Source of the DNA: Clostridia bacterium
GTDB taxonomy: Bacteria; Bacillota; Clostridia; Christensenellales; Aristaeellaceae
Assembly (NCBI GenBank): GCA_017470945.1
Contig: JAFUXH010000146.1
Span: 1 to 33,437, forward strand
DNA: 33,437 nt
Reading direction: 5' to 3'
The position numbers and the translations under genes are program-made. Shown here one piece after another: positions 9,836-21,748 of the stretch. Every line of letters starts with the position of its first letter. Position 1 is the stretch's first letter. The notes under the pieces were generated by a model. The model was not told where the DNA came from. It saw nothing but the letters and a program-made list of their open reading frames with translations, and did not search any database.

Positions 9836-10687
9836 ATGATCATTGACGTTCACACCCACACGTTCCCGGACCCGATCGCCCCGGCGGCCATCGACAAGCT
9901 GCAGGCCGCCAGCCATACCCGGCCCTTTACCGATGGCACCCGGGGGCAATTGCGGGCCTCCATGGCCCGGGCGGGCATCGGCGTTTCCGTGGTACTGCCG
10001 GTGGCCACCAGCGCCCGGCAGGTGCCCCGCATCAACGATACCGCCATTGCCACCAACAGCCGGGCGGCGGAGGAGGGGGTGTTTTCCTTCGGCGGCATGC
10101 ACCCGGATTTTCCAGATTGGGCGCCGGAACTGGAGCGCCTGGCCGCCGCGGGCGTCCGGGGCGTGAAGCTGCACCCGCCCTATCAGGGGGTGGATTTTGA
10201 CGACCCCCGGTATCTGCGCATCCTGAAAAAAGCCGCCGCACTGAAGCTGCCGGTGCTGATCCACGCCGGGCTGGACGTGGGCTTGCCCGGGGCGGAACAG
10301 GCCACGCCGGAAAAAATCGCCCGCGCTGTCGACGCCGTGCCGGAAGCGACGCTGATCCTGGCCCACATGGGCGGCTGGCGCTGCTGGGATCAGGCGGCGC
10401 GGCTGCTGCCCGGCTATCCCGTGTATCTGGATACCTCTTTTTCCCTGGGCAGCATGACCGGCAACGGCGACGGCTTTTACCGCACCCCGGAGGAAACGCG
10501 CATGCTGGAGCCCGACGCGTTCGTGGCCATCATCCGCCGCTTCGGGGCTGATCGCGTGCTGTTCGGCACCGATTCCCCTTGGGGCGATCAGGCCGCCTGC
10601 GTCGACGCGTTCCGGGCCCTGCCCCTGACGGAGGCGGAGCAGACGGCCATCCTGGAAAAAAACGCCGCCCGCCTGCTGGGATTGTAA
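9836..10687 (+). CDS. Amidohydrolase-2 family metal-dependent hydrolase
   Basis: A TIM-barrel hydrolase or decarboxylase of 283 aa, the family (ACMSD-like) that acts on small, often aromatic, carboxylates. Metal ligands are visible: HTH at residues 6-8 in MIIDVHTHTFPD, His143 in LIHAG, His177 in LAHMGG, and the catalytic Asp246 in FGTDSPWGD. ATG 9836 has GAGG 7-8 nt upstream. It lies directly after the acyl-CoA synthetase on the same strand, separated by a hairpin terminator, so the two may be partly co-transcribed. The reaction is unknown. A decarboxylase or hydrolase role in aromatic-acid turnover would fit the neighbourhood but is inference. Confidence 0.82.
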   Translation: MIIDVHTHTFPDPIAPAAIDKLQAASHTRPFTDGTRGQLRASMARAGIGVSVVLPVATSARQVPRINDTAIATNSRAAEEGVFSFGGMHPDFPDWAPELERLAAAGVRGVKLHPPYQGVDFDDPRYLRILKKAAALKLPVLIHAGLDVGLPGAEQATPEKIARAVDAVPEATLILAHMGGWRCWDQAARLLPGYPVYLDTSFSLGSMTGNGDGFYRTPEETRMLEPDAFVAIIRRFGADRVLFGTDSPWGDQAACVDAFRALPLTEAEQTAILEKNAARLLGL

Positions 10688-10752
10688 AAATGCGAAGCAG
10701 AGCTGAATGCCATTTGGGTTTCATGCATCCCTGGGGTTTGTCGATAATCTGT

Positions 10753-10784
10753 GCCATGTCCGGCTTGCCCGGCATGGCTTTTTT
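10753..10784 (+). terminator. Terminator after the amidohydrolase gene
   Basis: GCCATG-T-CCGG pairs with CCGG-C-ATGGC around a short loop and is followed by six Ts (10779-10784). Confidence 0.85.
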
Positions 10785-10821
10785 GCGGATGAAGATCGAG
10801 GAATGAAATTTTTACGACCGC

Positions 10822-10850
10822 GCATAATTTTCCGGCTCCGGCTCGTCTAT
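10822..10850 (+). promoter_or_regulatory. ECF-type promoter of the first sigma operon
   Basis: GCATAATTTT (10822-10831) and CGTCTAT (10844-10850) form a likely ECF -35/-10 pair. CGTCTA is a classic ECF -10. The same arrangement, with identical distance and the following AGGTGAAGG, stands before the second ECF gene at 12652-12680. This suggests autoregulation. Confidence 0.6.
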
Positions 10851-10873
10851 CCAGGTGAAGGGGGTGATCGGCG

Positions 10874-11401
10874 ATGGATCGTGCTATGGCGCCCGGCGGG
10901 ATCAGGGAACAAAGGCTGTCGGGCTGGATCGAGGCCTATTCGGATGCGATCCTGAGAACCTGTTATTTATATTTGTCCGATCGGGGGCAGGCGGAGGACG
11001 CCACCCAGGATACCTGGATCAAGGCCTGGAAACACATGGAGGATTTTGAACGCCGGGGGATTGCCAATGAAAAAGCGTGGCTGCTGCGCATTGCCGTCAA
11101 CACCTGCAAGGATTACAGGCGAACGGCCTGGTTCCGGCACGTCGATCGGGAGCGGGCGCTGGAGGAATTGCCCCCGCCCCTGCTGGCCGTGGAGCCCGCG
11201 GATCGTACGCTTGCCCTGACGGTGATGGCGCTTCCCGCCAAATACAAGCAGGTGATCCTGCTCTATTATTTCCAGGGGCTGACCATGCAGGAAACGGCCG
11301 ACGCTTTAGGCGCGGCCCAATCGACGGTGCAGCGGCGGCTGAAAAAGGCGGAAGAACTGCTGAAGGCTTCGCTGACGGGAGGTGAGGCAGATGAAGAATA
11401 A
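10874..11401 (+). CDS. ECF RNA polymerase sigma factor
   Basis: A sigma-70 family extracytoplasmic-function factor of 175 aa. Region 2 spans about residues 12-80, with the -10 recognition part at AEDATQDTWIKAW and WLLRIAVNTCKDYRR. Region 4 spans about 115-165, where LPAKYKQVILLYYFQGLTMQ leads into a helix-turn-helix (ETADALGAAQSTVQRRLKKAEE). The ATG at 10874 has GAAGGGGG about 9 nt upstream. It overlaps the start of the downstream anti-sigma candidate by 11 nt. The promoter ahead of it looks ECF-type, so the factor probably drives its own operon when released from the anti-sigma. Confidence 0.92.
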   Translation: MDRAMAPGGIREQRLSGWIEAYSDAILRTCYLYLSDRGQAEDATQDTWIKAWKHMEDFERRGIANEKAWLLRIAVNTCKDYRRTAWFRHVDRERALEELPPPLLAVEPADRTLALTVMALPAKYKQVILLYYFQGLTMQETADALGAAQSTVQRRLKKAEELLKASLTGGEADEE

Positions 11402-12602
11402 GCAAGAAGCGTTACAGCAATCGCTGAACGCGGTCCTTTCCGGGCTGCAAACGACGCCCCGGCAGCGGGATCGATTCTTTGACCGCGCGACGGGGGAGAG
11501 CCCAATAAAAAGAAAGCCCGTCCTCGGCGTGCGCCTGGCCCTGATCATCGCGCTGATGATCGCCATGACCGGCGCGGCCCTTGCCCTGACCCGCGGCTTT
11601 GGCATTTTTGACTTTGCCAGCAGCCATCGAAAGAACGTGGAGGTGCCTCCGGACGGGGAAAGCGGCATTTTGCGGGATCTGAAAACGGTGGATTGCGGCC
11701 ATGCGACGGTCGTTTTCCGGGAAGCGGCTTACGATGGCATGACCTGTCATTTGGTGTACGATGTGATCCCCCACCGGACAGACATGCTGCTTTTTGACTG
11801 CCCGACAGACGATAGCTGGTACGGGCTGACGCATTTGGATTGGGATGAGGAAGCCCTGCTTGCCGACGAGCGCACCATCCTGGACAGATGGGAGGAAGGG
11901 GGCTATGCCAGCGCGTGGGAAGTGGATTTTGATGTGGGCGCCGTCGATGGAGCAAGCTATGAGGACGCATACGGCGGCATGGGCGGCGTGCTGGATGAGG
12001 GAAGCGGCACGTATACCGGCACGGTGGAAATCCCGTTTCGATCCTTCCAGGCGGAAAGGACCATCCGGCTGTACGTGCGGCTGCTGCCCCTGAACGATCT
12101 TCATGACGAATATTCCTATGATTACGACCGATCGGAGATCGCCGTGCTGGAATATACCTTCCACGCGGAGGAGGGGAATGTGCGCGTCAGTGCCGGCCCG
12201 GTTCCTCTCCCCGGCATCGGCGTGACCGTAAACGACGTGCGCATGACGGTGCTGCCCCGGGAGATCGTGTATCAAATCACGTACGCCGTCACAGATCCGG
12301 CGGCCTTCCACGCCGCCTTTGACCGGGATTTGGGCGGTTTTATCCACACGGATTTCCCGCAATTCCGCTTCGTTTCCATGGACCCGGAAAGCGGGGCGGT
12401 TACCTTCCTCCCGGAGGGGATCACCTTCGAGTTTTCCCAAAATACGATCGACGCGGAAAAGGGCCTGTACGTACAAAGAGGCACCTTGGGCCTGAGCGCC
12501 GCGCGGGATACCTACACCCTCGCCGTGTTCCGCGATCTGTACGCGGAGGGAGCGACGATGCTGGAAACCGTATCCCTGAACATGCGGCCACAGGCGGACT
12601 AA
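11391..12602 (+). CDS. Membrane anti-sigma factor candidate
   Basis: A single-pass membrane protein of 403 aa: about 44 cytosolic residues, one transmembrane helix at about 45-66 (LALIIALMIAMTGAALAL), and a roughly 335-residue outside domain rich in beta strands. This topology, plus the 11-nt overlap with the ECF sigma gene, is that of a clostridial anti-sigma factor (DUF4179/RsiV-like group). The short N-terminus would bind the sigma factor and the outside domain would sense an envelope signal. ATG 11391 was preferred to GTG 11382 because GGGAGGTG sits just upstream of it. A strong terminator follows. The role is inferred from topology and context; no sequence motif proves it. Confidence 0.75.
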   Translation: MKNKQEALQQSLNAVLSGLQTTPRQRDRFFDRATGESPIKRKPVLGVRLALIIALMIAMTGAALALTRGFGIFDFASSHRKNVEVPPDGESGILRDLKTVDCGHATVVFREAAYDGMTCHLVYDVIPHRTDMLLFDCPTDDSWYGLTHLDWDEEALLADERTILDRWEEGGYASAWEVDFDVGAVDGASYEDAYGGMGGVLDEGSGTYTGTVEIPFRSFQAERTIRLYVRLLPLNDLHDEYSYDYDRSEIAVLEYTFHAEEGNVRVSAGPVPLPGIGVTVNDVRMTVLPREIVYQITYAVTDPAAFHAAFDRDLGGFIHTDFPQFRFVSMDPESGAVTFLPEGITFEFSQNTIDAEKGLYVQRGTLGLSAARDTYTLAVFRDLYAEGATMLETVSLNMRPQAD

Positions 12603-12609
12603 CGCCATC

Positions 12610-12643
12610 AAGGGCAGTTTGCGGACTGCCCTTAAATTTTTTT
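12610..12643 (+). terminator. Terminator after the anti-sigma gene
   Basis: A perfect 9-bp stem, AAGGGCAGT with ACTGCCCTT, a 6-nt loop and a T7 tail ending at 12643. Confidence 0.9.
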
Positions 12644-12651
12644 CAAAAAGA

Positions 12652-12680
12652 TGCAGGTTTTGCCTTTTTGCGCCGTCTAT
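12652..12680 (+). promoter_or_regulatory. ECF-type promoter of the truncated sigma gene
   Basis: TGCAGGTTTT (12652-12661) and CGTCTAT (12674-12680), aligned without gaps to the promoter of the first ECF module at 10822-10850. Both share TTTT and CGTCTAT at the same spacing and then AGGTGAAGG. Confidence 0.6.
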
Positions 12681-12704
12681 AGAGGTGAAGGAGGTGAGCA
12701 GCCG

Positions 12705-13097
12705 ATGATTGCAGAATTGGGCCAATCCTGCAATACAGAGGAAACATTCAACCGCTTGGTTTCAGCATATCAGCCGAAGATCCTGCGCATGTGCGCCATG
12801 TACCTGCGCGACGACGCAGCGGCGGAGGACGCCGTGCAGGAAACATTCCTGAAGGCGTACCGCGCCTTGCCCCGATTCCGGGGGGAATGCAGCGAAAAAA
12901 CCTGGCTGATGCGGATCGCCGTGAATACCTGCCGGGATATGACCCGGTCGGCCTGGTTCCGGCATACGGACAGGCGCGTCACGCCGGAGGACCTGACCCT
13001 GGCCGCGGAGAGCGCCGCATCCGATGAAAAGGAGGCGCTGGCGCAGGCAATCCTGCTGCTTCCCCGAAAGTATAAGGACGCGCTGCTGCTGTATTAG
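12705..13097 (+). pseudogene. Truncated ECF sigma factor lacking region 4
   Basis: 130 aa. The first 100 or so residues form a good ECF region 2 (FNRLVSAYQPKILRMCAMYL, AAAEDAVQETFLKAYRAL, TWLMRIAVNTCRDMTRSAWF), clearly paralogous to the sigma at 10874. The frame ends at LLLPRKYKDALLLY, exactly where region 4 begins in the paralogue, so the whole helix-turn-helix for -35 recognition is missing. No remnant of region 4 or of a partner anti-sigma gene was found in the 135 bases before the convergent ABC operon. GGAGG precedes ATG 12705 and the promoter is intact, so a shortened protein may still be made. It is most likely a deletion remnant; a region-2-only protein is the less likely alternative. 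Confidence 0.75.
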
Positions 13098-13169
13098 AAC
13101 TTTTGTCAAGGATAGAAAGATATTTTTTGGCAAAATAGCAAGCTCCGCTGAAACCGTTTGAACTGCGGC

Positions 13170-13229
13170 AAAAAAGTCAACAAGGCTTCCCATCAAAATC
13201 GAAGGGAAACCTTGTTGATTTCTTTTTTT
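13170..13229. terminator. Bidirectional terminator between the sigma remnant and the ABC operon
   Basis: CAACAAGG-C-TTCCC at 13178-13191 pairs with GGGAA-A-CCTTGTTG at 13204-13217. T-rich tails flank it on both strands (13220-13229 on plus, 13175-13170 on minus), so it serves both converging transcripts. Confidence 0.85.
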
Positions 13230-13232
13230 CTG

Positions 13233-14012
13233 TTATGCCAAATCTTGTTTACTCAATATCAGGTTAGAGGCCGTTCCCAATCCACCTGCAAACAGCGCGC
13301 CGCCCATGAGGCACATCATCACATGCATGATGCCGGCATTCAGCGGCGTCATCATGGGGATCATCATAAACAACAGCATCCCGGCAAAGGCGAACAGCAG
13401 GACGGAAAGCCAGCTTCTGTTTTTGCCAAAGCAGCTCACCGCCACAGCGATTGCCACGAACACCAGCATCAGGAAAATCTTGGCGATCATGCACATGATG
13501 AGACCGAACACGCCCGCCGCGCCCAGGGTGAAGGGCAAGCCCGCCACGCCGCCGCCGAGGACCGCGCCGATGAAGAACGCTACCAGCATCAGCGCCCCGG
13601 CAACAAAGCCGGAAACGGTCTTGGAGATAACATAATCCTTTTTCTTGGCGCGGACAGTAAACAGGTTTTTGGCGTATCCGCTGCGGAAATCATCGGCGAT
13701 GAACAGGCACACGAACACCCCCGCCATAAAGAAGATCAGGTTGATGTTGCACATGGCCGTCATGTCCATGGCCATCATGCCCTCGCCGCTCTCCGTGCCA
13801 ATGATCTGCCAGGTATTGGTAAACGTTTCCATGGCCGTTTCAATGCCCGTCTGAGGATTGGCCACTGTTGTGCCGTCCATCATGGTTGTCATCGTGAGAA
13901 TTAGAATCGGCATCATCAGGGCGATCAAAAGAAAGATGGGCAGGCGGGAGGTGGTGAACATCCGGCGGAAATCCACCTGCATCATGCTGTTCAAACGCTT
14001 GGATTTGCTCAT
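13233..14012 (-). CDS. ABC-2 type transporter permease (second pair)
   Basis: An integral membrane protein of 259 aa with about six hydrophobic helices: one near residues 25-45, one about 95-112, and four in the C-terminal half. A long loop after helix 1 (about 45-90) probably faces outward. DDFRSGYAKNLFTVRAKKKDYVISK is the cytosolic coupling stretch typical of bacitracin/lantibiotic ABC-2 permeases. It overlaps the upstream ATPase gene by 4 nt. It is paralogous to the permease at 14927, with which it shares the FRSGY/YRSGY-K-LFT pattern. It is the last gene of the four-gene ABC operon and ends at a bidirectional terminator. Confidence 0.85.
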   Translation of the reverse strand: MSKSKRLNSMMQVDFRRMFTTSRLPIFLLIALMMPILILTMTTMMDGTTVANPQTGIETAMETFTNTWQIIGTESGEGMMAMDMTAMCNINLIFFMAGVFVCLFIADDFRSGYAKNLFTVRAKKKDYVISKTVSGFVAGALMLVAFFIGAVLGGGVAGLPFTLGAAGVFGLIMCMIAKIFLMLVFVAIAVAVSCFGKNRSWLSVLLFAFAGMLLFMMIPMMTPLNAGIMHVMMCLMGGALFAGGLGTASNLILSKQDLA

Positions 14013-14911
14013 TGCTTCTTTCCTCCCATCAGGTCGATATAATATTCTTCCAGGCCGATCTTGGCCGTCCAGATTTCGCTGACCGTGACGCCCTTTTCAT
14101 ACAGGAAGGAAGCCACGTCCTCCGGCCAAACATCGCCATAAACGCGGATGGTGCCGTCCTCCTCTTCCTCCACCCGGTCGTACTTGCCTTTGAGCAGCAG
14201 CTTGATCTTGCTGCCCTCGTCCGTGCGCAGGGCGATATAGGTGGGACAGTCAGCTTCCAGTTCTTCCGCTGTCATTTCCCGGATCATCCTGCCGTGCCGG
14301 ATGATGCCGTAATGGGTGGCAATCTTCTCCAATTCGCCTAAAATGTGGGAGGAAATCAGCACGGTGCAGTGGTAGTTTTGCGTAATATCGGTGAGCACCT
14401 CCCGCATGATACGCATACCGTCTGCGTCCAAGCCGTTGATGGGCTCATCCAGCACCAGCAGGCGGGGATTCCCCAGCAGGGCCATGGCGATGCCAATGCG
14501 CTGCTTCATGCCCAGGGAGCAGTTTTTGAATTTATTGGAAGCCGCGCCTTCCATGCGCACGGTTTTGAGCACCTTGGCAATTTCCTGCTCCGGATTCTTG
14601 ATTTCCAGGTTCGCCGCCTGGATCATCATGTTGTTCCACACGCTGCAATCGGGGAAGCAGCCCGGTGCTTCGATCAGCACGCCAATGTGGGAACGGATTT
14701 CATCGTCATTGTGATCCTTGCCGTACAGTTGGATACTGCCGGAGGTGGGATGCAGCAGCCCGCAGATCATCTTCTCCGTGGTGGATTTGCCGCTGCCGTT
14801 TTCTCCGATGAAGCCGTAAATGGCCCCCTCCGGCACGGTCATGTTCAGATTGTCCACGGCTTGCTTGCTGCCAAAGCGTTTGGATAAACCGCGAATTTCA
14901 ATGGCATTCAT
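14009..14911 (-). CDS. ABC transporter ATPase, BcrA/LanF type (second pair)
   Basis: Cytosolic nucleotide-binding subunit of 300 aa. Walker A is GENGSGKST (36-44), the signature SLGMKQR (131-137), and Walker B LLVLDEP (150-156). Where most ABC proteins have a Q-loop glutamine, IGVLIEAPGCFP has Glu80, the E-loop known for lantibiotic-immunity ATPases such as NukF. The extra C-terminal stretch ends in LEEYYIDLM, as usual in the BcrA/LanF group. AGGAGG precedes the ATG. It pairs with the permease overlapping its 3' end. The likely role is removing antimicrobial peptides or related envelope-active compounds from the membrane. Confidence 0.9.
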   Translation of the reverse strand: MNAIEIRGLSKRFGSKQAVDNLNMTVPEGAIYGFIGENGSGKSTTEKMICGLLHPTSGSIQLYGKDHNDDEIRSHIGVLIEAPGCFPDCSVWNNMMIQAANLEIKNPEQEIAKVLKTVRMEGAASNKFKNCSLGMKQRIGIAMALLGNPRLLVLDEPINGLDADGMRIMREVLTDITQNYHCTVLISSHILGELEKIATHYGIIRHGRMIREMTAEELEADCPTYIALRTDEGSKIKLLLKGKYDRVEEEEDGTIRVYGDVWPEDVASFLYEKGVTVSEIWTAKIGLEEYYIDLMGGKKQ

Positions 14912-14926
14912 TGTGCGTACACCTCC

Positions 14927-15766
14927 TCAATATACATCGCTGCGGTTCAGCACCAGCGTACCCAGCGCGTTATAGACCACAGCCCAGGCCACGGACACCG
15001 CAATGCAGGTCAGTAGCGTCACGATATTGCTGCTCAGGCAGGCGTTCACCGACGAACCGTACAGAAAGACGTTCAGGGCGGGGCTATTGCCCAGCAGCGC
15101 CGCCGCGCCGATGATGGGGATACCCGTGCCCAGCACAAAGCTGGAAGTAATCGAAACACCAAACTGGCGGCGGAAGATGACGTTGAGGAAGGTGTACAGG
15201 CTGGCCCAGCCCAGGCTCATGACGGCTTTGCCCAAGATCGCCAGCAGCAAAGAGAAATAATTGGCGCGAAACTCCATCCCGGCAAACAGACCGCCTGTGA
15301 TGCCGCCCAGCAGGTACGTGGCGCACATACAAACCATGGCAAAGGCGCAAACCAGGGATTTGGAAATCATGTAGTCGCTTTTATGGGAGTGCGTTGTAAA
15401 CAGCTGCTTCACATATCCGCTGCGGTAATCGTGCCCGATGAAGATGGACACCATGATGCCGCCGAAGATGAACACCATGTTCATGTTGGCGTACTCACCA
15501 ATGTCATGCACCACATACAAAGGAGAATCCGCCGCCACGATATTCCAGGCGTTGGTGAACAGCGGGGCAGCAGCCGCGCCATCCGGCCCGCTCATCATGC
15601 CCATGCTGGATATCATGCCCGGGATGATGGCGGCAATGGCCAGGAAGATATAGAACATGGGCGTATGGAACAGCCTGTAAAAGTCCACGCCCAGCATGCT
15701 TTTCAGGCGCTTTTGCAGGGTAGGAGATTCAAAGGTGGGTGTCAAAGTCGCTTGCATTTTAGGCAC
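14927..15766 (-). CDS. ABC-2 type transporter permease (first pair)
   Basis: An integral membrane protein of 279 aa with about six hydrophobic helices, among them FYIFLAIAAIIPGMISSMGM near residue 40 and MVFIFGGIMVSIFIG near 115, then four in the C-terminal half. A cytosolic stretch, HDYRSGYVKQLFTTHSHKSDYMISK, follows helix 2 and matches the coupling region of the second permease. It overlaps the end of the upstream ATPase gene by 8 nt, so translation is coupled. Together with the 13233 permease it could form a LanE/LanG-like heteromeric channel, or each may pair with its own ATPase. Confidence 0.85.
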   Translation of the reverse strand: MPKMQATLTPTFESPTLQKRLKSMLGVDFYRLFHTPMFYIFLAIAAIIPGMISSMGMMSGPDGAAAAPLFTNAWNIVAADSPLYVVHDIGEYANMNMVFIFGGIMVSIFIGHDYRSGYVKQLFTTHSHKSDYMISKSLVCAFAMVCMCATYLLGGITGGLFAGMEFRANYFSLLLAILGKAVMSLGWASLYTFLNVIFRRQFGVSITSSFVLGTGIPIIGAAALLGNSPALNVFLYGSSVNACLSSNIVTLLTCIAVSVAWAVVYNALGTLVLNRSDVY

Positions 15767-16661
15767 CTTCTTTCTTGGACATGAGTTCGATATAGTATTC
15801 CTCCAGGCCGATGCGGTTTTTCCGGATTTCCTGGACGGTGTGGCCGTTGTCCAGCAGATCCCGCACGATGGCTTCGGTGTCGTTCATGTCATAGACCCGC
15901 AGGCTGCCGTCCTCCAGGCGTACATCGGGAAATTTCTTTTGCAGGTCGGCCAGGGCCCGCTGCATATTGCCTGTTTTCACAGTGGTGAAGGTGCGGCAGC
16001 GGCCTTCCATTTCGGCGGCAGTCAGCTCCTGGATCATTTTCCCCTGACGGATGATGCCGTAGTGGGTGGCGATCTTCTCCAGTTCGCCCAGGATGTGGGA
16101 GGAGATCAGCACCGTGCAGCCGTAATTCTTCGTGATGTCCACCAGGATCTCCCGCATGATGCGCATCCCGTCGGTATCCAGGCCGTTGATGGGCTCGTCT
16201 AAAATCAGCAGGGCCGGGTCACCCAGCAGGGCCATGGCGATGCCGATGCGCTGCTTCATGCCCAGGGAGCATTTTTTGAATTTCAGCTGAGCTTCATCGT
16301 CCATGCGCACGATCTTCAATACGCGCTGGATTTCCTCGTCCGGGTTTTGCAGGTTCAGGTTGATGGCCTGCATCATCAGGTTCTGGTAAATGGTGGAATT
16401 GGGAAAGCACCCCGTGTTCTCAATCAGCGCGCCTACCCTGGCCCGCACACCAGCGTCCCTGTAGCTTTTGCCAAACAGCTTGATATCGCCGCTGTCCTTG
16501 ACCAGGTGCCCGCAGATCAGCTTTTCCGTGGTAGATTTTCCACTGCCGTTTTCCCCGATAAAGCCGTAGATAGCGCCTACCGGAACGGTCATATCCAGGC
16601 CGTCCAGGGCATACAGCCCGCGAAAGGACTTTTTCAGCCCATGAATTTCAATGGCGTTCAT
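15759..16661 (-). CDS. ABC transporter ATPase, BcrA/LanF type (first pair)
   Basis: The 300-aa ATPase subunit, first gene of the ABC operon. Walker A is GENGSGKST, the signature SLGMKQR, and Walker B LLILDEP. The E-loop is at Glu81 (VGALIENTGCFP), again as in lantibiotic-immunity ATPases. It is equal in length to the ATPase at 14009 and colinear with it, so the ATPase/permease pair has been duplicated in tandem. An AAAGGAGAAGG ribosome site precedes ATG 16661. About 55 nt upstream lies the promoter with the 11-bp-spaced repeat box shared with the kinase operon, so the operon is probably controlled by the response regulator at 20932. Confidence 0.9.
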   Translation of the reverse strand: MNAIEIHGLKKSFRGLYALDGLDMTVPVGAIYGFIGENGSGKSTTEKLICGHLVKDSGDIKLFGKSYRDAGVRARVGALIENTGCFPNSTIYQNLMMQAINLNLQNPDEEIQRVLKIVRMDDEAQLKFKKCSLGMKQRIGIAMALLGDPALLILDEPINGLDTDGMRIMREILVDITKNYGCTVLISSHILGELEKIATHYGIIRQGKMIQELTAAEMEGRCRTFTTVKTGNMQRALADLQKKFPDVRLEDGSLRVYDMNDTEAIVRDLLDNGHTVQEIRKNRIGLEEYYIELMSKKEGA

Positions 16662-16714
16662 GTTCCTTCTCCTTTTCTCCGTTTCGTCAGGTTTTCCATC
16701 TGACAGGGAGAAGG

Positions 16715-16765
16715 ATACAAAAGGTTTGTTTGCGTATTGTTCAAGTTTTGTTAGAGAAGTGTTAA
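16715..16765 (-). promoter_or_regulatory. ABC operon promoter with response-regulator box
   Basis: On the minus strand, TTAACA (16765-16760) and CTAACA (16754-16749) are direct repeats 11 bp apart. They are followed by a -35-like TGAACA (16743-16738), a 17-bp spacer and TTGTAT (16720-16715). The box and a 15-nt stretch of spacer (ATACGCAAACAAACC) are the same as at 18964-19014. Tandem sites spaced 11 bp, just upstream of a poor -35, are typical of OmpR-family activation. Confidence 0.7.
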
Positions 16766-16925
16766 TACTAAAATCTTCTGAAAAGTGGACATCTTTTCGG
16801 TCCTTTTTCTCCGTGGCCTTGCTTCATTCCGGTCAACGTAGCGCTGCTACGCCTCCCTTCATTCAGCTTTGCCACGACAAAAAATGCCTCGAAAATCTTA
16901 TCCACTTTTCATTAGATTTTAGTAT
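16765..16925. repeat. 161-bp palindromic MITE-like element
   Basis: The ends ATACTAAAATCT and AGATTTTAGTAT are exact inverse copies. The arms continue as TGAAAAGTGGA against TCCACTTTTCA, then CTTTTCG against CGAAAAT, with CGTGGC and GCCACG further in. The centre is GTAGC-GCT-GCTAC (16838-16850). No gene lies inside. It abuts the response-regulator box of the ABC operon. It resembles a non-autonomous mobile element or large RNA hairpin; mobility would need a search for other copies. Confidence 0.75.
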
Positions 16926-16963
16926 AATGCGAAAGCGCTTGAAGGGTTCTTTTTTCTTTCCGT

Positions 16964-17006
16964 AAAAAGAACCGCAAATCAAGGCAAATTGCTTGATTCG
17001 CGGTTC
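16964..17006 (-). terminator. Terminator of the small-ORF/AttH-like operon
   Basis: On the minus strand, GAACCGCGAATCAAG pairs with CTTGATTTGCGGTTC (one mismatch) around an 8-nt loop, followed by TTTTT. Confidence 0.85.
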
Positions 17007-17027
17007 CTGGCCGTTCAAAATATATGA

Positions 17028-18167
17028 TTAAAGCGTATCGAATTTTTCGCCGCTTTTCGTTTCGTCGCTGTACAGCTCAGCGGGGAGGATGTTGGGATAG
17101 GCATGCCATTGACGAATGGAGAGGAAGCCATATCCATCGGTCAAGTGCTTGACACGGCCATCACGGTAAGTGAAGGTGCCTTCCGCCTGATCGAAAACGA
17201 GCGTGGCAACCGGGTTATCCGGGTGTTTATAGGTCACTCCCCAGGTGTCGATATTTGCGACGCGGAAACTGACCGAATAAACACCGTCTTCGGTATTGAT
17301 CCGGATCCGGTAACGGCTGGGATAAAAGCCGTCCAATGGCCGATAGAAGGCCCAATCCTCATGAACGATCTCCATTTCGGAAATATCCCTGTCGCCTCCC
17401 TTCAGGTTTCCTAAAGAGGTATAGTGTTTCCCGGTTTCAACATCATAAATGGAATAGTCCTTCATTCCCGCGCGCATGTCATACATAGAGGAGTGCATCC
17501 CGTCAAAGCAGACGAACCCCCAATCCTCCCATGCGCCAAGCTCGGCGGCGGAAGAATCTACAGCCACGTAGCGCTCCCTCAAGGCAAATCCCTTCATAAT
17601 GTTGACACGTTTTCCCCGATAGACAAAGTAACCTTCCACCGGGCCGGCCCAATTATATCCATAGGTGATGGAATGCTGCGTAAGGGCAGACGGCTTTTCC
17701 CGGCCGTACCAAAGGGGGTATCCCTTGGGAGCGTGATGGAGTTCAGCGTAGTATTCGCCGTCTCCGCTATCCAGCGTCAGATGCCAACGGTTATCTGAAT
17801 AAGCTTCCAGCGTGAACTCCCTGCCGCAGGTCACAATAATGTGATCCGGATGCTGCGTAATTTGCAATGTTCCCTGGGGATGCTTGAAAAATCTTTTGGG
17901 CATCAGCTCTCCCGGGTATTCTCCTACCCGATAGATAGAGTTTCGAAGCTGACGGGTGCCGCCGCGCCCCCGGTCGATGTGCATTGTGACAAGGTCCATT
18001 TTTTCCGCGTGCATGGAAAGGATGCTTCCGCCAAAGGAATACAGCTCCCCATCGTCACCGGTAACGATTGCTCTGAACAGCCAGTCCAGAAACCCTTGCC
18101 GTACTTCTTCCTTGACTCCTATTCTTGCATCATCGGCCAAGGTAACCTTGGGTTCGTTGATTTGCAT
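17028..18167 (-). CDS. Beta-rich protein, possibly AttH/CrtC lipocalin-like
   Basis: A 379-aa protein without signal peptide or membrane helix, so probably cytosolic. It is rich in beta strands and aromatic residues. Stretches such as ITYGYNWAGPVEGYFVYRG, ALRERYVAVDSS and GFVCFDGMHSSMYD recall the two-lipocalin fold of AttH/CrtC/kievitone-hydratase-like proteins, but the resemblance is faint and no catalytic motif can be named. ATG 18167 has AGGAGG 8 nt upstream. It is the last gene of the operon starting at the box at 18964-19014, 41 nt after the repeat protein, and is closed by a terminator. Context suggests a role in the response governed by the neighbouring two-component system. The molecular function is unknown. 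Confidence 0.65.
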   Translation of the reverse strand: MQINEPKVTLADDARIGVKEEVRQGFLDWLFRAIVTGDDGELYSFGGSILSMHAEKMDLVTMHIDRGRGGTRQLRNSIYRVGEYPGELMPKRFFKHPQGTLQITQHPDHIIVTCGREFTLEAYSDNRWHLTLDSGDGEYYAELHHAPKGYPLWYGREKPSALTQHSITYGYNWAGPVEGYFVYRGKRVNIMKGFALRERYVAVDSSAAELGAWEDWGFVCFDGMHSSMYDMRAGMKDYSIYDVETGKHYTSLGNLKGGDRDISEMEIVHEDWAFYRPLDGFYPSRYRIRINTEDGVYSVSFRVANIDTWGVTYKHPDNPVATLVFDQAEGTFTYRDGRVKHLTDGYGFLSIRQWHAYPNILPAELYSDETKSGEKFDTL

Positions 18168-18208
18168 GATCAAAGCCTCCTGGTCGTTTTCTATTTGTAT
18201 GTAAATGA

Positions 18209-18658
18209 TTATTTTTTATCGACTGGCTGATGGATTGCGGTGCGCTCCTGGATTTCCTGCATTTTCTTTTCGCGCTTTTCCTCCCGCGCCTTTTGCTCGG
18301 CAGCCATGCGCTCCTTGGCCTGATCTACGGTTTCGCCCTCTTTGGTTAGGAACTTGCCCACAATTTTGTCGGTCATCTTATTGAAGCCGCTGACCACCCC
18401 GTTTTCGATGGCCTTATAGCCGCTCACCACGCCGGTTTCAATAGCTTTATAGCCGGAAACGACGCCTTTTTCGATGGCCTCAAAGCCGCTGACGGTGCCT
18501 TTTTCAATGGCCTGGTATGTGCTGGCTGCGCTTTCGGCGATTTGTTCCCCAACTTCGCCGGCCTTTTCCAACATTTTCTGCTGACCTTCCACCGCAGCAT
18601 TCATCGCCTGCTCGTTTACGTCCATTGCGCTTTGCAGCATATCCTTGTTTTCGCTCAT
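18209..18658 (-). CDS. Helical protein with four 11-residue repeats
   Basis: 149 aa, no signal or membrane segment, strongly charged. Residues 48-91 are four tandem 11-mers of the form (Y/F)-x-A-I-E-x-G-x-V-S-G, followed by a degenerate fifth unit running into MTDKIVGKF. The N-terminal third is Ala/Gln/Glu-rich helix and the C-terminus a Lys/Glu/Arg-rich probable coiled coil (AKERMAAEQKAREEKREKK). Eleven-residue periodicity suits an amphipathic helix lying on a membrane, as in apolipoprotein- or LEA-like proteins. That is inference. The third gene of the small-ORF operon, it has a GAGAGAT-type ribosome site. Similar repeat proteins occur in Clostridia as hypothetical proteins; I know of no assigned function. 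Confidence 0.8.
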   Translation of the reverse strand: MSENKDMLQSAMDVNEQAMNAAVEGQQKMLEKAGEVGEQIAESAASTYQAIEKGTVSGFEAIEKGVVSGYKAIETGVVSGYKAIENGVVSGFNKMTDKIVGKFLTKEGETVDQAKERMAAEQKAREEKREKKMQEIQERTAIHQPVDKK

Positions 18659-18683
18659 GATGATCTCTCCTTTATTTTATTGA

Positions 18684-18815
18684 TTATTGATATATGTACA
18701 TGCCCTTGGCAAGATACTTGGCGCGGATGGCGTCCATTTCCTTCTGATCCTCGGCGGAATAGGTGATGTTCACAGCGTTTTCATGCTTGTCCATGGTGAA
18801 ACTTTCCTCTTGCAT
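18684..18815 (-). CDS. 43-residue small protein coupled to the membrane peptide
   Basis: A small charged protein with no membrane segment, ending in MDAIRAKYLAKGMYIYQ. The ATG at 18815 shares its A with the TAA stop of the preceding 32-residue gene (TAATG), the usual sign of translational coupling. An internal ATG at 18794 with AGAGGAAAG upstream could give a 36-residue form. A predicted helix covers about the last 25 residues (SAEDQKEMDAIRAKYL). The function is unknown. It sits between a membrane peptide and the 11-mer repeat protein in an operon led by the response-regulator box. Confidence 0.65.
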   Translation of the reverse strand: MQEESFTMDKHENAVNITYSAEDQKEMDAIRAKYLAKGMYIYQ

Positions 18816-18913
18816 TACGCCTTGCTCTTCTGATGGCTGCGGATATATTCGGTAAGCCCCAGGGACAGGGGATAAAGAACCGTCAGGATCACGAATAAAT
18901 GAATCAGCGTCAT
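18815..18913 (-). CDS. 32-residue single-helix membrane peptide
   Basis: A very short gene with a strong ribosome site (GGAGGG, 7-8 nt before the ATG). The peptide begins MTLIHLFVILTVLYPLSLGL, one hydrophobic helix of about 18 residues, then a basic hydrophilic tail (EYIRSHQKSKA), so the C-terminus should face the cytosol only if the N-terminus is outside. It is the first gene after the promoter with the shared regulatory box and its stop overlaps the next start. Small membrane peptides of this kind often modulate a kinase or transporter. Such a link to the adjacent kinase or ABC system is an inference from position. Confidence 0.65.
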   Translation of the reverse strand: MTLIHLFVILTVLYPLSLGLTEYIRSHQKSKA

Positions 18914-18963
18914 GGCCTTGCCCTCCTATTTCTGTCCGTCGGTTTCCAACGGACAGGTATATC

Positions 18964-19014
18964 ATACAGGCGGTTTGTTTGCGTATTGTCAAAGTTTTGT
19001 TAGAGAATTGTTAA
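18964..19014 (-). promoter_or_regulatory. Small-ORF operon promoter with response-regulator box
   Basis: On the minus strand, TTAACA (19014-19009) and CTAACA (19003-18998) are direct repeats spaced 11 bp, then a perfect -35 TTGACA (18992-18987), a 17-bp spacer and CTGTAT (18969-18964). The upstream repeat overlaps the stop codon of the membrane protein gene, so the promoter begins inside the end of the kinase operon. It is nearly identical to the ABC operon promoter at 16715-16765. Confidence 0.72.
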
Positions 19015-19889
19015 TGCGAGCCTTTTTTCCAGGGTTGGCTTTGAACGATCATATAGGCCGACAGGGTGATCAGCAGTGCCGTCACCACCGCCCCGCCGAT
19101 GGCGTTCATGGTGTGGGCAAAATCGATCCCTTCTTTTCCAAACTGTGCGATCATAGCGGTTTGCAAGGCCAGGATGGACATAAGCGCCCCGGCAAAGGAA
19201 AGGCACCGGGCGGCGGCCAAGGCTTTGTTTTCGTCCCTGCGGCGTTTGACCAGGTTCATGACGGCCGCGATGATTTTGTAAAACGCCCACGTGGCCATCG
19301 CGTAAATCAGCACGCCGGGGTAGCTGTATGCCCGATTCCGAATCACCATCTGCACGAACACGCCGGACATCACCAGCGTCAAAAAATTGAGTTGCCAGGC
19401 CGTGCGGCGATAGGCTGCCCGCCCTTGCCGGTCGTCGTTTTTGCCGATGGAACGCAGCAGGGAAAACCGCAGCGCCGCCAGTACGGCGTAATAGATCCCC
19501 AAAGCGCCCATCCAAATGGATTGAAAATAGATCCCCGTGGCCAGTTTGAATACCGCGTAGACCAGATTGACAACGAGGGAACAATTCAATATGACGGCCG
19601 AGCGTTTTTCATAAGTGGTCAGATTGGGCAGGAGACGATCCAGTTTTTCGTTGCCGGTGTGGATGCTTTGCGCGGTGCGGGAAACGGTGTTTCGAATATG
19701 ACGGATGAAGCCCGGAATCCGTACGCAGACTGCGATTAAGGTATAAGCGGAGAGAAGATAAGCAATATAATTCAGCACCGTTTTTTCTGCATTATTGTTA
19801 AAAACGATGATGAGCAGAATGATCGAAAGCACGGTCAAAATCGCGATAGCCGGGCCGCCCGGAGAAAAGAGTTTTTTCATTGTTTTCAT
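19011..19889 (-). CDS. Polytopic membrane protein of the two-component operon
   Basis: 292 aa with about eight hydrophobic helices (for example AIAILTVLSIILLIIVF near 15-30, YIAYLLSAYTLIAVCV near 41-56, and pairs near 100-140, 165-205 and 230-280). Basic loops such as NLVKRRRDENK are probably cytosolic. No catalytic motif was recognised. It starts at ATG 19889, overlapping the kinase stop by 4 nt (ATGA), so its synthesis is coupled to the kinase, which suggests it is a partner or target of the signalling system, for example an accessory sensor. It could also be an unrelated envelope-stress membrane protein. The function is unknown. Confidence 0.7.
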   Translation of the reverse strand: MKTMKKLFSPGGPAIAILTVLSIILLIIVFNNNAEKTVLNYIAYLLSAYTLIAVCVRIPGFIRHIRNTVSRTAQSIHTGNEKLDRLLPNLTTYEKRSAVILNCSLVVNLVYAVFKLATGIYFQSIWMGALGIYYAVLAALRFSLLRSIGKNDDRQGRAAYRRTAWQLNFLTLVMSGVFVQMVIRNRAYSYPGVLIYAMATWAFYKIIAAVMNLVKRRRDENKALAAARCLSFAGALMSILALQTAMIAQFGKEGIDFAHTMNAIGGAVVTALLITLSAYMIVQSQPWKKGSH

Positions 19890-20935
19890 GCCGCGCTCCG
19901 TCTGATGCTGACCGTGAAGGTGCTGCCCTTGCCGACTTCGCTCTGCACGCTGATCTGCCCTTCCGTCAAATCCACCACCCGCTTCACCAGCGCCAGGCCC
20001 AGGCCGTTGCCTTCCGTGGCGTGGCTGGTATCGCCCTGATAGAATTTATCGAAGATACGCTTGCCTGTTTCCTTGTCCATGCCGCAGCCGGTATCGGCCA
20101 CCGACACCACCGCCCATTCCTTTTCCGGGCGGACGGTTACCTGGATCGCCCCGCCCTCCGGCGTGAACTTCACGGCGTTGGACAGCAGATTGTTCCACAC
20201 CAGGGTCAGCAATTCGGGATCGGCATTGACCAGGATGCGCTCGTCCATATCGCATTGCAGGTCGATTTGTTTTTCTTCCAGCGCGTCATCAAAGGCAAGC
20301 AGGCACTCCGCCACCTGCTCGGTCAGGTCGTATTCCTGCACCTTGGGGCTGATCTGCTGGTTTTCCAGCTTGTTCATTTTCAGGATGTTGGTGATCAGCG
20401 CCGTCATGCGCTGGGTAGCTTTGTCGATGTTCTGGGCGTATTCCGTTCGTTGGCCGTCGGTCAGGCCGTCGCTTTGCAGCATTTTGGCATAATTGCGAAT
20501 CACGGCTAAAGGCGTTTTCAATTCGTGGGACACGTTGGAAACGAAATCCGTCCGCAGGGTGGTGGTATTCGATAATTCCTCCGCCATCAGGTTAAAATCT
20601 TCGGCGATTCGGCTGAAATCCTCGCTGGCCACGGTGAATTTTCCGGTGTCGATGCGGGCGGAAAAGTCGCCCGACCGCATGCGTCCCGTCGCCTCCCGGA
20701 TGCGCTTCACGGGCCGATCTACCGTCACCTTGCGAACAACCCACTCGATCAGGCAGCAGAGCAGGCTGAGAAGAAAGATGTTGCCGAAGGTGAACAGGGC
20801 ATTTTGCGCCAGAATGGAATAATCGATGTTCATGGAATGAAAGAATAACAGGAAGGACGACGTGACCACAAAAGAGATCAGAAAAAAGAAGGCCGCATAC
20901 CGCCAGATCAGAAAACCCCTGCGTTCCTTCGTCAT
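19886..20935 (-). CDS. Sensor histidine kinase, intramembrane-sensing type
   Basis: 349 aa: transmembrane helices near 12-31 and 46-66 with only about 14 residues between them, a HAMP domain (about 67-122), the phosphoacceptor box FVSNVSHELKTP with His137, and a HATPase_c domain with N-box NNLLSNAVKFTP, G1 DTGCGM and G2 GLGLAL. The tiny outside loop means the signal is probably sensed within the membrane or through a partner, as in BceS-type kinases that work with peptide-exporting ABC transporters. It overlaps the response regulator gene by 4 nt. The cognate targets are probably the three promoters with TTAACA repeats in this block. Confidence 0.92.
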   Translation of the reverse strand: MTKERRGFLIWRYAAFFFLISFVVTSSFLLFFHSMNIDYSILAQNALFTFGNIFLLSLLCCLIEWVVRKVTVDRPVKRIREATGRMRSGDFSARIDTGKFTVASEDFSRIAEDFNLMAEELSNTTTLRTDFVSNVSHELKTPLAVIRNYAKMLQSDGLTDGQRTEYAQNIDKATQRMTALITNILKMNKLENQQISPKVQEYDLTEQVAECLLAFDDALEEKQIDLQCDMDERILVNADPELLTLVWNNLLSNAVKFTPEGGAIQVTVRPEKEWAVVSVADTGCGMDKETGKRIFDKFYQGDTSHATEGNGLGLALVKRVVDLTEGQISVQSEVGKGSTFTVSIRRSAA

Positions 20936-21606
20936 GGATGGATCACCGCCTTGTAGCCCAGGCCGCGCACGGTTTGGATTTCAAAGGCATCGCAGTCCGC
21001 GAATTTATCCCGCAGCTTGGTCATATACACGTCCACCGTGCGCAGGGTGGAGGAGGAATCGGCGTCCCAGAATTCGTCCATCAGCTGGGCGCGGGTGAAG
21101 GTCTTTTTGGGGTAGGACAAGAGTTTATACAGGATATTGAATTCCCGGGTGGTCAGCGTGACTTCCTCGCCGTCCACGGTGCAGGAGCGCTCATCCGCGT
21201 CCAGCACCACATTGCCCACCGTGATCCGATGGCTGTTGGCGATCTTCGCCCGGCGCAGCAGCGCCCCGATGCGCAGCACCAATTCCTCCAGGTCAATGGG
21301 CTTCACCATGTAATCATCCACCCCGATCTGGAACCCCTGCCGCTTGGCAGCGAAATCGTCCCGGGCGGTCATGAACAGGATGGGCATATCACGGCTCGTT
21401 TCTCTTACCGTCCGGGCAAACTCAAAGCCGTCCATGCCCGGCATCATGATGTCGGACACGATGAGATCGTACAGATCATTGTACAGCGTATTGAAAGCGT
21501 CGTTGGCATTCAGGCAGCCAACGGCTTCATAACCATTTTGTTTCAGATAGGCACAGACCTGCTGGTTCAGCTCCCGATCATCCTCCACGACCAGAATACG
21601 GAACAT
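20932..21606 (-). CDS. OmpR-family response regulator
   Basis: A transcription factor of 224 aa. Its receiver domain (about 1-118) has the acidic pair ED(D) near residue 9, phospho-acceptor Asp52 (IVSDIMMPGMDG), the switch Thr in LFMTARDD and Lys in DYMVKPID. The C-terminal winged helix (about 130-222) has the TTREFNILYKLL and RTVDVYMTKLRDKF stretches. ATG 21606 was chosen because AAAGGAGGG lies 6 nt upstream. It is the first gene of the operon with the kinase. OmpR-type regulators bind direct repeats of about 11 bp spacing, which matches the boxes found before this operon, the small-ORF operon and the ABC operon. Confidence 0.93.
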   Translation of the reverse strand: MFRILVVEDDRELNQQVCAYLKQNGYEAVGCLNANDAFNTLYNDLYDLIVSDIMMPGMDGFEFARTVRETSRDMPILFMTARDDFAAKRQGFQIGVDDYMVKPIDLEELVLRIGALLRRAKIANSHRITVGNVVLDADERSCTVDGEEVTLTTREFNILYKLLSYPKKTFTRAQLMDEFWDADSSSTLRTVDVYMTKLRDKFADCDAFEIQTVRGLGYKAVIHP

Positions 21607-21651
21607 AGAAAACCCTCCTTTGGGATCGGATGAAATCATTATTCCATAACG

Positions 21652-21707
21652 CTCGGCGTGCTCCCGTTCGGGGCCCGCCGAGACGGATAATTGACCTGCG
21701 GTCAATT
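21652..21707 (-). other. Two leader hairpins before the response regulator gene
   Basis: Downstream of the predicted start point (about 21714 on the minus strand) lie a perfect 8-3-8 inverted repeat, AATTGACC-TGC-GGTCAATT (21689-21707), and a 7-bp pair CTCGGCG/CGCCGAG (21652-21658, 21676-21682). They could fold in the mRNA leader, or the first could be a repressor operator. No known riboswitch was recognised. Confidence 0.45.
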
Positions 21708-21720
21708 TCCTCGTTATTAT

Positions 21721-21748
21721 ATCATACCGATTGTTAAAGTTGTGTTAA
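21721..21748 (-). promoter_or_regulatory. Two-component operon promoter with overlapping box
   Basis: On the minus strand, TTAACA (21748-21743) and TTAACA (21737-21732) are direct repeats spaced exactly 11 bp. Here the distal repeat can act as the -35 itself, with TATGAT (21726-21721) as -10 after 16 bp, so the box overlaps the promoter instead of preceding it. This suggests autoregulation with a different sign or strength from the two other boxes. Confidence 0.6.

What the first reader, a model, noticed from the sequence alone, without database searches (positions are those of the whole stretch)
16715..21748. Three promoters share a direct-repeat box spaced exactly 11 bp: a local regulon of the two-component system
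Minus-strand TTAACA-N5-(T/C)TAACA occurs before the response regulator operon (21748-21732), the small-ORF operon (19014-18998) and the ABC operon (16765-16749). Eleven-bp direct repeats are the known site shape for OmpR-family regulators, and the block encodes one. In two cases the box lies just upstream of the -35; in the third it overlaps the promoter, so the effect may differ.
Basis: partly seen in the sequence, partly recalled or inferred. Interest (0 to 1): 0.75.

Follow-up and report, generated by a model that had tools for sequence, protein, structure and literature searches.

The report
Self-contained regulon of a two-component system
Three neighbouring promoters in an uncultured gut Clostridia genome carry tandem 11-base repeats where a -35 element would be, a pattern conserved beside the same sensor-regulator gene pair in many related bacteria, so the pair most likely switches on its own genes and a nearby transporter.

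Summary
TTAACA-N5-YTAACA occurs three times in the window, at the stated places, each at a predicted promoter, and nowhere else in the 2.99 Mb genome apart from an assembly duplicate. As a 17-mer it is not rare: reversed controls average about 1.3 per genome.

At the small-ORF and ABC promoters the box is four tandem 11-bp half-sites, with a -10 starting 48 bp from the box start. At the regulator promoter two half-sites sit close to the register of repeats 3 and 4, followed by an extended -10.

A strict four-repeat-plus-(-10) pattern, scanned through 100 genomes (own included), hits only beside this kinase: 8 distinct sites in 5 genomes, no reversed-control hits. Of 97 loci with kinase relatives, 81 hold a site above every shuffled maximum in leave-one-out tests.

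Best reading: the locus OmpR/PhoB-type regulator activates these promoters and its own operon from a position replacing the -35. It resembles known PhoB, PhoP and SaeR sites but does not test as a Pho system. Binding and signal are untested. Verdict: real, conserved, new member of a known kind.

The parts
21732..21748 (-). Two half-sites TTAACA-N5-TTAACA at the response-regulator promoter
   Evidence: same layout in near relatives L053, L055, L078-L081
21716..21724 (-). Extended -10, TGaTATAAT, of the regulator promoter (predicted)
18976..19014 (-). Four 11-bp half-sites of the small-ORF promoter (TTAACA, CTAACA, TTGACA, CAAACA); the first overlaps the stop codon of the preceding gene
18961..18966 (-). 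Predicted -10 TATGAT, starting 48 bp from the box start
16727..16765 (-). Four 11-bp half-sites of the ABC promoter (TTAACA, CTAACA, TGAACA, CAAACA)
16712..16717 (-). Predicted -10 TATCCT, starting 48 bp from the box start (same hexamer in L078)
20932..21606 (-). Response regulator, 224 aa, OmpR/PhoB type
19886..20935 (-). Histidine kinase, 349 aa, two hydrophobic stretches with a short loop between
19011..19889 (-). Membrane-like protein, 292 aa, no Pfam or NCBIfam match, downstream of the kinase
18815..18913 (-). 32-codon hydrophobic small ORF, first gene after the small-ORF box
18684..18794 (-). 36-codon small ORF; relatives are 122-123 aa
18209..18658 (-). 149-aa protein with repeated GxxAIExGVVSG-like units; relatives lie beside boxes in other loci
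17028..18173 (-). 381-aa protein without family match; whether it belongs to the small-ORF operon was not tested
15759..16661 (-). ABC ATPase 1, nearest NCBIfam model TIGR03740 lantibiotic protection (below cut-off)
14927..15766 (-). ABC-2 type permease 1 (Pfam hit just under cut-off)
14009..14911 (-). ABC ATPase 2, same nearest model (below cut-off)
13233..14012 (-). ABC-2 type permease 2

Best explanation
The boxes are binding sites of the locus response regulator, an OmpR/PhoB-type winged-helix protein. Shown by sequence: 11-bp tandem half-sites of consensus about YWAACA, four at target promoters and two at the regulator promoter, in fixed register with a -10-like hexamer and without a -35, conserved beside the same kinase-regulator pair. 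Inferred: the kinase senses an envelope signal within the membrane and phosphorylates the regulator; two head-to-tail dimers fill the four half-sites from about -60 to -22 (start sites are predicted, not mapped) and recruit RNA polymerase to a promoter lacking a -35 (class II activation). The regulator promoter, with two half-sites and an extended -10, would have basal activity plus positive feedback. Targets are the small-ORF/149-aa operon and a two-ATPase, two-permease transporter resembling peptide-protection exporters, so the system most likely defends against or exports membrane-active compounds.
For: Sites and genome rarity. In 100 genomes, own included, the strict pattern at up to 1 mismatch gave 10 hits, 8 without the C145 duplicates, in 5 genomes; all lie within about 3.2 kb of a kinase relative placed, with 0 reversed controls. 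Spacing control over 103 loci (two of them duplicates): 61 four-repeat sites at period 11 against 0 or 1 at each other period from 7 to 16; TANNNT at offset 48 in 55 of 59 sites. Leave-one-locus-out PWM: 81 of 97 loci above all 97 shuffled maxima, 72 of them above 20 bits. Regulator promoters: 48 of 90 have the two-half-site and -10 form, against a mean of 0.05 of 90 in 20 shuffles and 2 of 90 in reverse complements. TG of the extended -10: 35 of 47 two-half-site sites against 6 of 55 four-half-site sites. 48 of 55 four-repeat sites have a recurring gene family starting within 330 bp. Five positions of the presumed recognition helix are invariant in 91 aligned regulators. Domains.
Against: No binding, footprint or transcript data. 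The own genome has 7 other regulators of this type (28-36% identity) that could bind instead. Of the 12 genomes with a kinase at least 49% identical (own included), only 4 have a strict-pattern hit; five others have weaker sites by PWM (L057, L060, L061, L063, L064) and three have none above the shuffled maximum (L055, L058, L062). 16 of 97 loci miss that threshold; some are short contigs, others are long (L071, L097, L098, L100, L129, L134), and one that passes does so barely (L091, -0.7 against -0.9). Leaving out one locus does not remove its near relatives. 7 of 55 sites have no recognised gene after them; one of these (L053:4028) runs into the contig end. The 17-mer alone is at background. 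The reversed-sequence control gave 30 sites at the same score; I judge it invalid because CAAACA reads almost the same backwards, but it did not come out clean. The scoring was written after seeing the first boxes.
Confidence: 0.85

Rival explanations
1. A different OmpR/PhoB-type regulator, such as a phosphate-type PhoP/PhoB, binds the boxes, and the locus is one target of a wider regulon.
For: The nearest NCBIfam models of the regulator and kinase are phosphate-type (PhoB; PnpS, PhoR), all below cut-off; 7 other such regulators exist in the genome.
Against: No other four-repeat site in the own genome at up to 2 mismatches; strict hits in 100 genomes only beside this kinase. No PstB above cut-off (best 248.8 against 343.2 bits), and PhoU only below cut-off inside a 696-aa open frame (75.1 against 130.25 bits). 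The genome is given as 95% complete, so absence is not proof.
Confidence: 0.08
2. The boxes mediate repression, at least at the regulator promoter, by covering the -35 zone. (Repression at the regulator promoter alone is compatible with activation of the targets, so these odds overlap with those of the best explanation.)
For: Half-sites overlap the promoter core in all three cases, and the regulator promoter has an extended -10 that could work without an activator.
Against: Four-repeat sites lack a -35 (0 of 55), which suits activation. In seven loci the regulator promoter itself carries the four-repeat form (L066, L099, L136, L137, L150, L155, L157).
Confidence: 0.15
3. The repeats are chance A/C-rich sequence at promoters, or copies spread by recent duplication.
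For: The window small-ORF and ABC boxes are alike over about 44 bp, so one may be a copy of the other; the bare 17-mer is at background.
Against: Period of exactly 11 bp, fixed -10 distance and conservation across divergent loci; the letters between half-sites differ from locus to locus while the register is kept.
Confidence: 0.02

Closest known systems
Bacillus subtilis PhoP / E. coli PhoB Pho boxes
   Same: 11-nucleotide direct repeat units bound head to tail by OmpR/PhoB-type regulators (review PMC4415409, passages seen). From recall only: B. subtilis PhoP sites are TT(A/C/T)ACA-like repeats, four in the core region, at about -66 to -22.
   Different: Regulator and kinase score below the PhoB, PnpS and PhoR cut-offs; strict sites lie only beside this locus; no phosphate gene was recognised among targets; Pfam found no PAS domain in the kinase.
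Staphylococcus aureus SaeRS
   Same: Direct repeat GTTAA-N6-GTTAA (period 11), a kinase with a predicted nine-residue loop between two membrane helices, and activation of its own saeP1 promoter (PMC5083920, passages seen).
   Different: Half-site here is about YWAACA, in four copies at targets; targets are a transporter and small membrane proteins; no sequence comparison with SaeR was made.
Cpr/LanFEG-type lantibiotic resistance operons with their two-component systems
   Same: Two-component system beside an ABC exporter (review PMC5786555, passages seen); ATPases nearest TIGR03740, below cut-off.
   Different: Two ATPases and two permeases here, where LanFEG has one ATPase and two permeases; sites in relatives also precede an epimerase or an acyltransferase-like protein.
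Clostridioides difficile RR_1586
   Same: OmpR-family regulator with a direct repeat of an 11-nt motif, consensus DRTTAAGNWWWDRTTAAGNWWW (PMC6222199, passages seen).
   Different: Different half-site, and two copies in the described site.

Membership tests
OmpR/PhoB-type response regulators | Receiver domain followed by Trans_reg_C winged helix | tested here: met
   PF00072 90.3 bits and PF00486 75.6 bits, both above cut-off
OmpR/PhoB-type response regulators | Direct-repeat sites of about 10-11 bp period | tested here: met
   Period 11; that this protein binds them is inferred
Phosphate regulon regulator (PhoB/PhoP) with PhoR/PnpS | Match above curated PhoB and PnpS/PhoR cut-offs | tested here: not met
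   PhoB 174.8 of 296.2 and 179.9 of 270 bits; PnpS 219.7 of 400; PhoR 195.5 of 334.2
Phosphate regulon regulator (PhoB/PhoP) with PhoR/PnpS | Controls pst/phoU phosphate genes | tested here: not met
   No four-repeat site elsewhere in the own genome; no PstB or PhoU above cut-off; genome 95% complete
Intramembrane-sensing histidine kinases | Two membrane helices with a loop too short to be a sensor domain | tested here: met
   Hydropathy peaks at residues 14-32 and 45-64, about 12 residues between; hydropathy only, no topology program
Cpr/LanFEG-type lantibiotic protection transporters | ATPase above TIGR03740 cut-off | tested here: not met
   210.3 and 191.7 of 309.75 bits
Class II activator promoters | Site overlapping or replacing the -35, no -35 hexamer | tested here: met
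   55 of 59 sites have TANNNT at offset 48; 0 of those 55 have a TTGACA-like hexamer at 16-18 bp
Class II activator promoters | Transcription rises when the regulator binds | not testable with these tools
   needs a reporter assay

The most novel reading that the evidence does not exclude
A widespread two-component family of gut Clostridia, not found described in the searches made here, uses a two-tier promoter code: two half-sites plus an extended -10 at its own gene (basal activity with feedback), and four half-sites replacing the -35 at its targets (tight, cooperative activation). Its regulon travels with it, in the genomes scanned lying within a few kb of the kinase, while the target genes are swapped between lineages (exporters, epimerase, acyltransferase-like protein, small membrane proteins).
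Probability: 0.6. Interest if true: 0.6.

Novelty: new member of a known kind. Interest (0 to 1): 0.5.

Why it matters
It gives an uncharacterised sensor-regulator family of gut and rumen Clostridia a readable binding code. New targets can be proposed by sequence alone, and relatives whose records are not labelled as metagenome assemblies (Ruminococcus flavefaciens FD-1, Clostridium sporosphaeroides DSM 1294, Lachnoclostridium sp. An169) make it testable. The natural variation between two and four half-sites around a fixed -10 is a ready-made series for asking how half-site number sets the basal level and induction of a promoter.

Tried and rejected
Rejected: a phosphate-regulon reading. Rejected: counting the two C145 sites as independent. 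Rejected: the 17-mer alone as evidence of a regulon, because its reversed control is more frequent than the motif. Dropped as a control: the reversed-sequence scan (30 sites), since the half-site is nearly its own reversal. One search had one N too few and found nothing; one search is the corrected pattern. Rfam and tRNA searches of the window were empty. No structure was predicted.

Literature: 8 answered full-text searches showed no description of this system or box in the rows listed, which are part of what matched; one search returned nothing. The primary B. subtilis PhoP papers were not seen, so the -66 to -22 figure is recall. PMC6232261 (passages) gave no PhoP consensus.

Sets and relabelling. 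One search kept the best 80 of 581 confirmed relatives, itself a capped list. Loci L075-L077, fetched for stray 17-mers, were not in the counts. Of the 97, 5 had no regulator found near the kinase (L089, L096, L126, L139, L154) and 2 too short an upstream region (L110, L148), leaving 90. Five of the 48 two-half-site regulator promoters (L136, L137, L150, L155, L157) lie within four-repeat boxes, three of them (L136, L137, L150) with the -10 match inside the box. The label MP_b came from an open frame of L144 that runs on into its regulator gene, so six of its eight sites (L066, L136, L137, L150, L155, L157) are read here as regulator promoters, by the regulator positions, and two (L144, L146:1583) as membrane-protein promoters.

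Full report
The observation. In the whole genome (2,985,186 bases, 165 contigs) the same 17-mer pattern occurs 5 times: the three in the window and two on contig C145. C145 is 9,121 bp and matches window 9909-19029 with 2 mismatches, so it is redundant assembly. The 17-mer is not itself rare: in the 28 other genomes of the genus searched it occurs 5 times, twice at the orthologous locus (G010, G020) and three times elsewhere (G013, G016, G025), while the reversed control pattern occurs 39 times over the 29 genomes.

Reading on past the second repeat, the small-ORF promoter is TTAACAATTCT-CTAACAAAACT-TTGACAATACG-CAAACAAACCG-CCTGTATGAT and the ABC promoter TTAACACTTCT-CTAACAAAACT-TGAACAATACG-CAAACAAACCT-TTTGTATCCT: four half-sites with an 11-bp period, and a -10-like hexamer that begins 48 bp after the box start. 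The third repeat of the small-ORF box is TTGACA, but 20 bp from the -10. The regulator promoter has two half-sites, then TGaTATAAT, an extended -10 whose hexamer begins 27 bp after the box start. Measured from the -10, these two half-sites lie at 27 and 16 bp, against 26 and 15 bp for repeats 3 and 4 of the target boxes. A four-repeat pattern with up to 2 mismatches finds only the two window promoters and their C145 copies (6 reversed-control hits). The regulator-promoter pattern with up to 3 mismatches finds only the window site.

Conservation. The kinase was sought in 100 genomes, own included, and 80 loci of named genome records were fetched with it, the best of 581 relatives, 44-83% identical over the best segment. 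In the 100 genomes, the four-repeat pattern with its -10, at up to 1 mismatch, gives 10 hits, 8 after removing C145: two each in G000, G010 and G024, one each in G005 and G081. All lie within about 3.2 kb of the kinase relative, and no reversed control hits. Of the 12 genomes with a kinase at least 49% identical, 4 have such a hit; the others have weaker sites by the matrix below (5) or none (3). Over 103 loci, four-repeat sites at score 17.8 or more number 61 at period 11 and 0 or 1 at each other period from 7 to 16; of 59 sites left after removing duplicates, 55 have TANNNT at offset 48. A position matrix from 55 sites, always leaving out the locus being tested, scores 81 of 97 loci above all 97 shuffled maxima, 72 of them above 20 bits. 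The 16 misses include short contigs, L055, whose contig ends inside the kinase, and long ones (L071, L097, L098, L100, L129, L134). The matrix rests on sites found with a score I wrote after seeing the first boxes, and near relatives stay in when one locus is left out, so the spacing, -10 and pattern-scan results carry more weight.

Two promoter types. In 90 loci with a usable regulator upstream region, 48 have two half-sites with a -10 at 26 (41) or 27 (7) bp; shuffles give a mean of 0.05 of 90 over 20 rounds and reverse complements 2 of 90. Five of the 48 lie in four-repeat boxes. Scored without it, 35 of 47 such sites have the TG of an extended -10, against 6 of 55 four-repeat sites; none of the 55 has a TTGACA-like -35 at 16-18 bp. 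In seven loci (L066, L099, L136, L137, L150, L155, L157) the regulator promoter carries the four-repeat form.

The genes. The regulator has receiver and Trans_reg_C domains; the kinase has HisKA and HATPase_c, with a HAMP hit just under cut-off, and two hydrophobic stretches about 12 residues apart. Nearest NCBIfam models are phosphate-type but far below cut-off. The ABC block is ATPase-permease-ATPase-permease; the ATPases are nearest the lantibiotic-protection model, below cut-off. Across loci, 48 of 55 four-repeat sites have a recurring gene starting within 330 bp of the -10: an NAD-dependent epimerase (11), a 122-123-aa small membrane protein (9, plus the window's short form, 1), a second small-protein family (6), the regulator (7), the ABC ATPase (4), the 149-aa family (3), a 508-aa acyltransferase-like protein (3), another ABC ATPase (2) and membrane-protein genes (2); 7 have none recognised (with the relabelling told under tried and rejected). 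The epimerase assignment is by Pfam; the acyltransferase label is my reading of a weak, sub-cut-off Condensation hit.

Mechanism. Shown: site structure, register, conservation, co-localisation with the two-component genes. Inferred: that this regulator binds, that two dimers fill the four half-sites, that the effect is activation, and that the signal is envelope-related. In 91 aligned regulators, R186, V188, D189, V190 and R196 (numbered from the fourth codon) are invariant; that they lie in the recognition helix is recalled from the fold, not modelled. Against: no binding data, seven other regulators of the type in the genome, and loci without a site.

Comparison. Eleven-bp direct repeats are usual for this regulator class: Pho boxes (PMC4415409, passages), SaeR (PMC5083920, passages), RR_1586 of C. 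difficile (PMC6222199, passages). It works like these; it is not a Pho system by the tests made here. The searches listed under tried and rejected showed no paper describing this box. I therefore call it a new member of a known kind, with a two-tier promoter layout as its distinctive trait.

Noticed in passing
window 16765-16925: A 25-nt inverted repeat (92% complementary, 111 nt between arms) flanked by TA abuts the ABC box; it looks like a small non-autonomous element. Besides its own arms and the C145 duplicate, one weak arm match (2 mismatches, C108) was found in the genome.
   Followed up: partly
window 18684-18794: The second small ORF of the operon is 36 codons here but 122-123 aa in relatives L078-L081 and L096; the window copy looks shortened.
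   Followed up: partly
window 21689-21707: Just downstream of the regulator -10 is an inverted repeat AATTGACC-N3-GGTCAATT that the near relative L055 lacks; it could be another regulator's operator.
   Followed up: no
contig C145 of the own genome against window 9909-19029: A 9,121-bp contig is a copy of part of the window with 2 mismatches, so the assembly is redundant; contamination is given as 8.36%.
   Followed up: yes
window 17028-18173: A 381-aa protein without Pfam or NCBIfam match sits between the 149-aa gene and the ABC box; in L078 there is no room for it at that place, and a 63% relative is in L139.
   Followed up: no
window 18209-18658: The 149-aa protein has repeated GxxAIExGVVSG-like units, and relatives recur beside these boxes in other loci; function unknown.
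   Followed up: no
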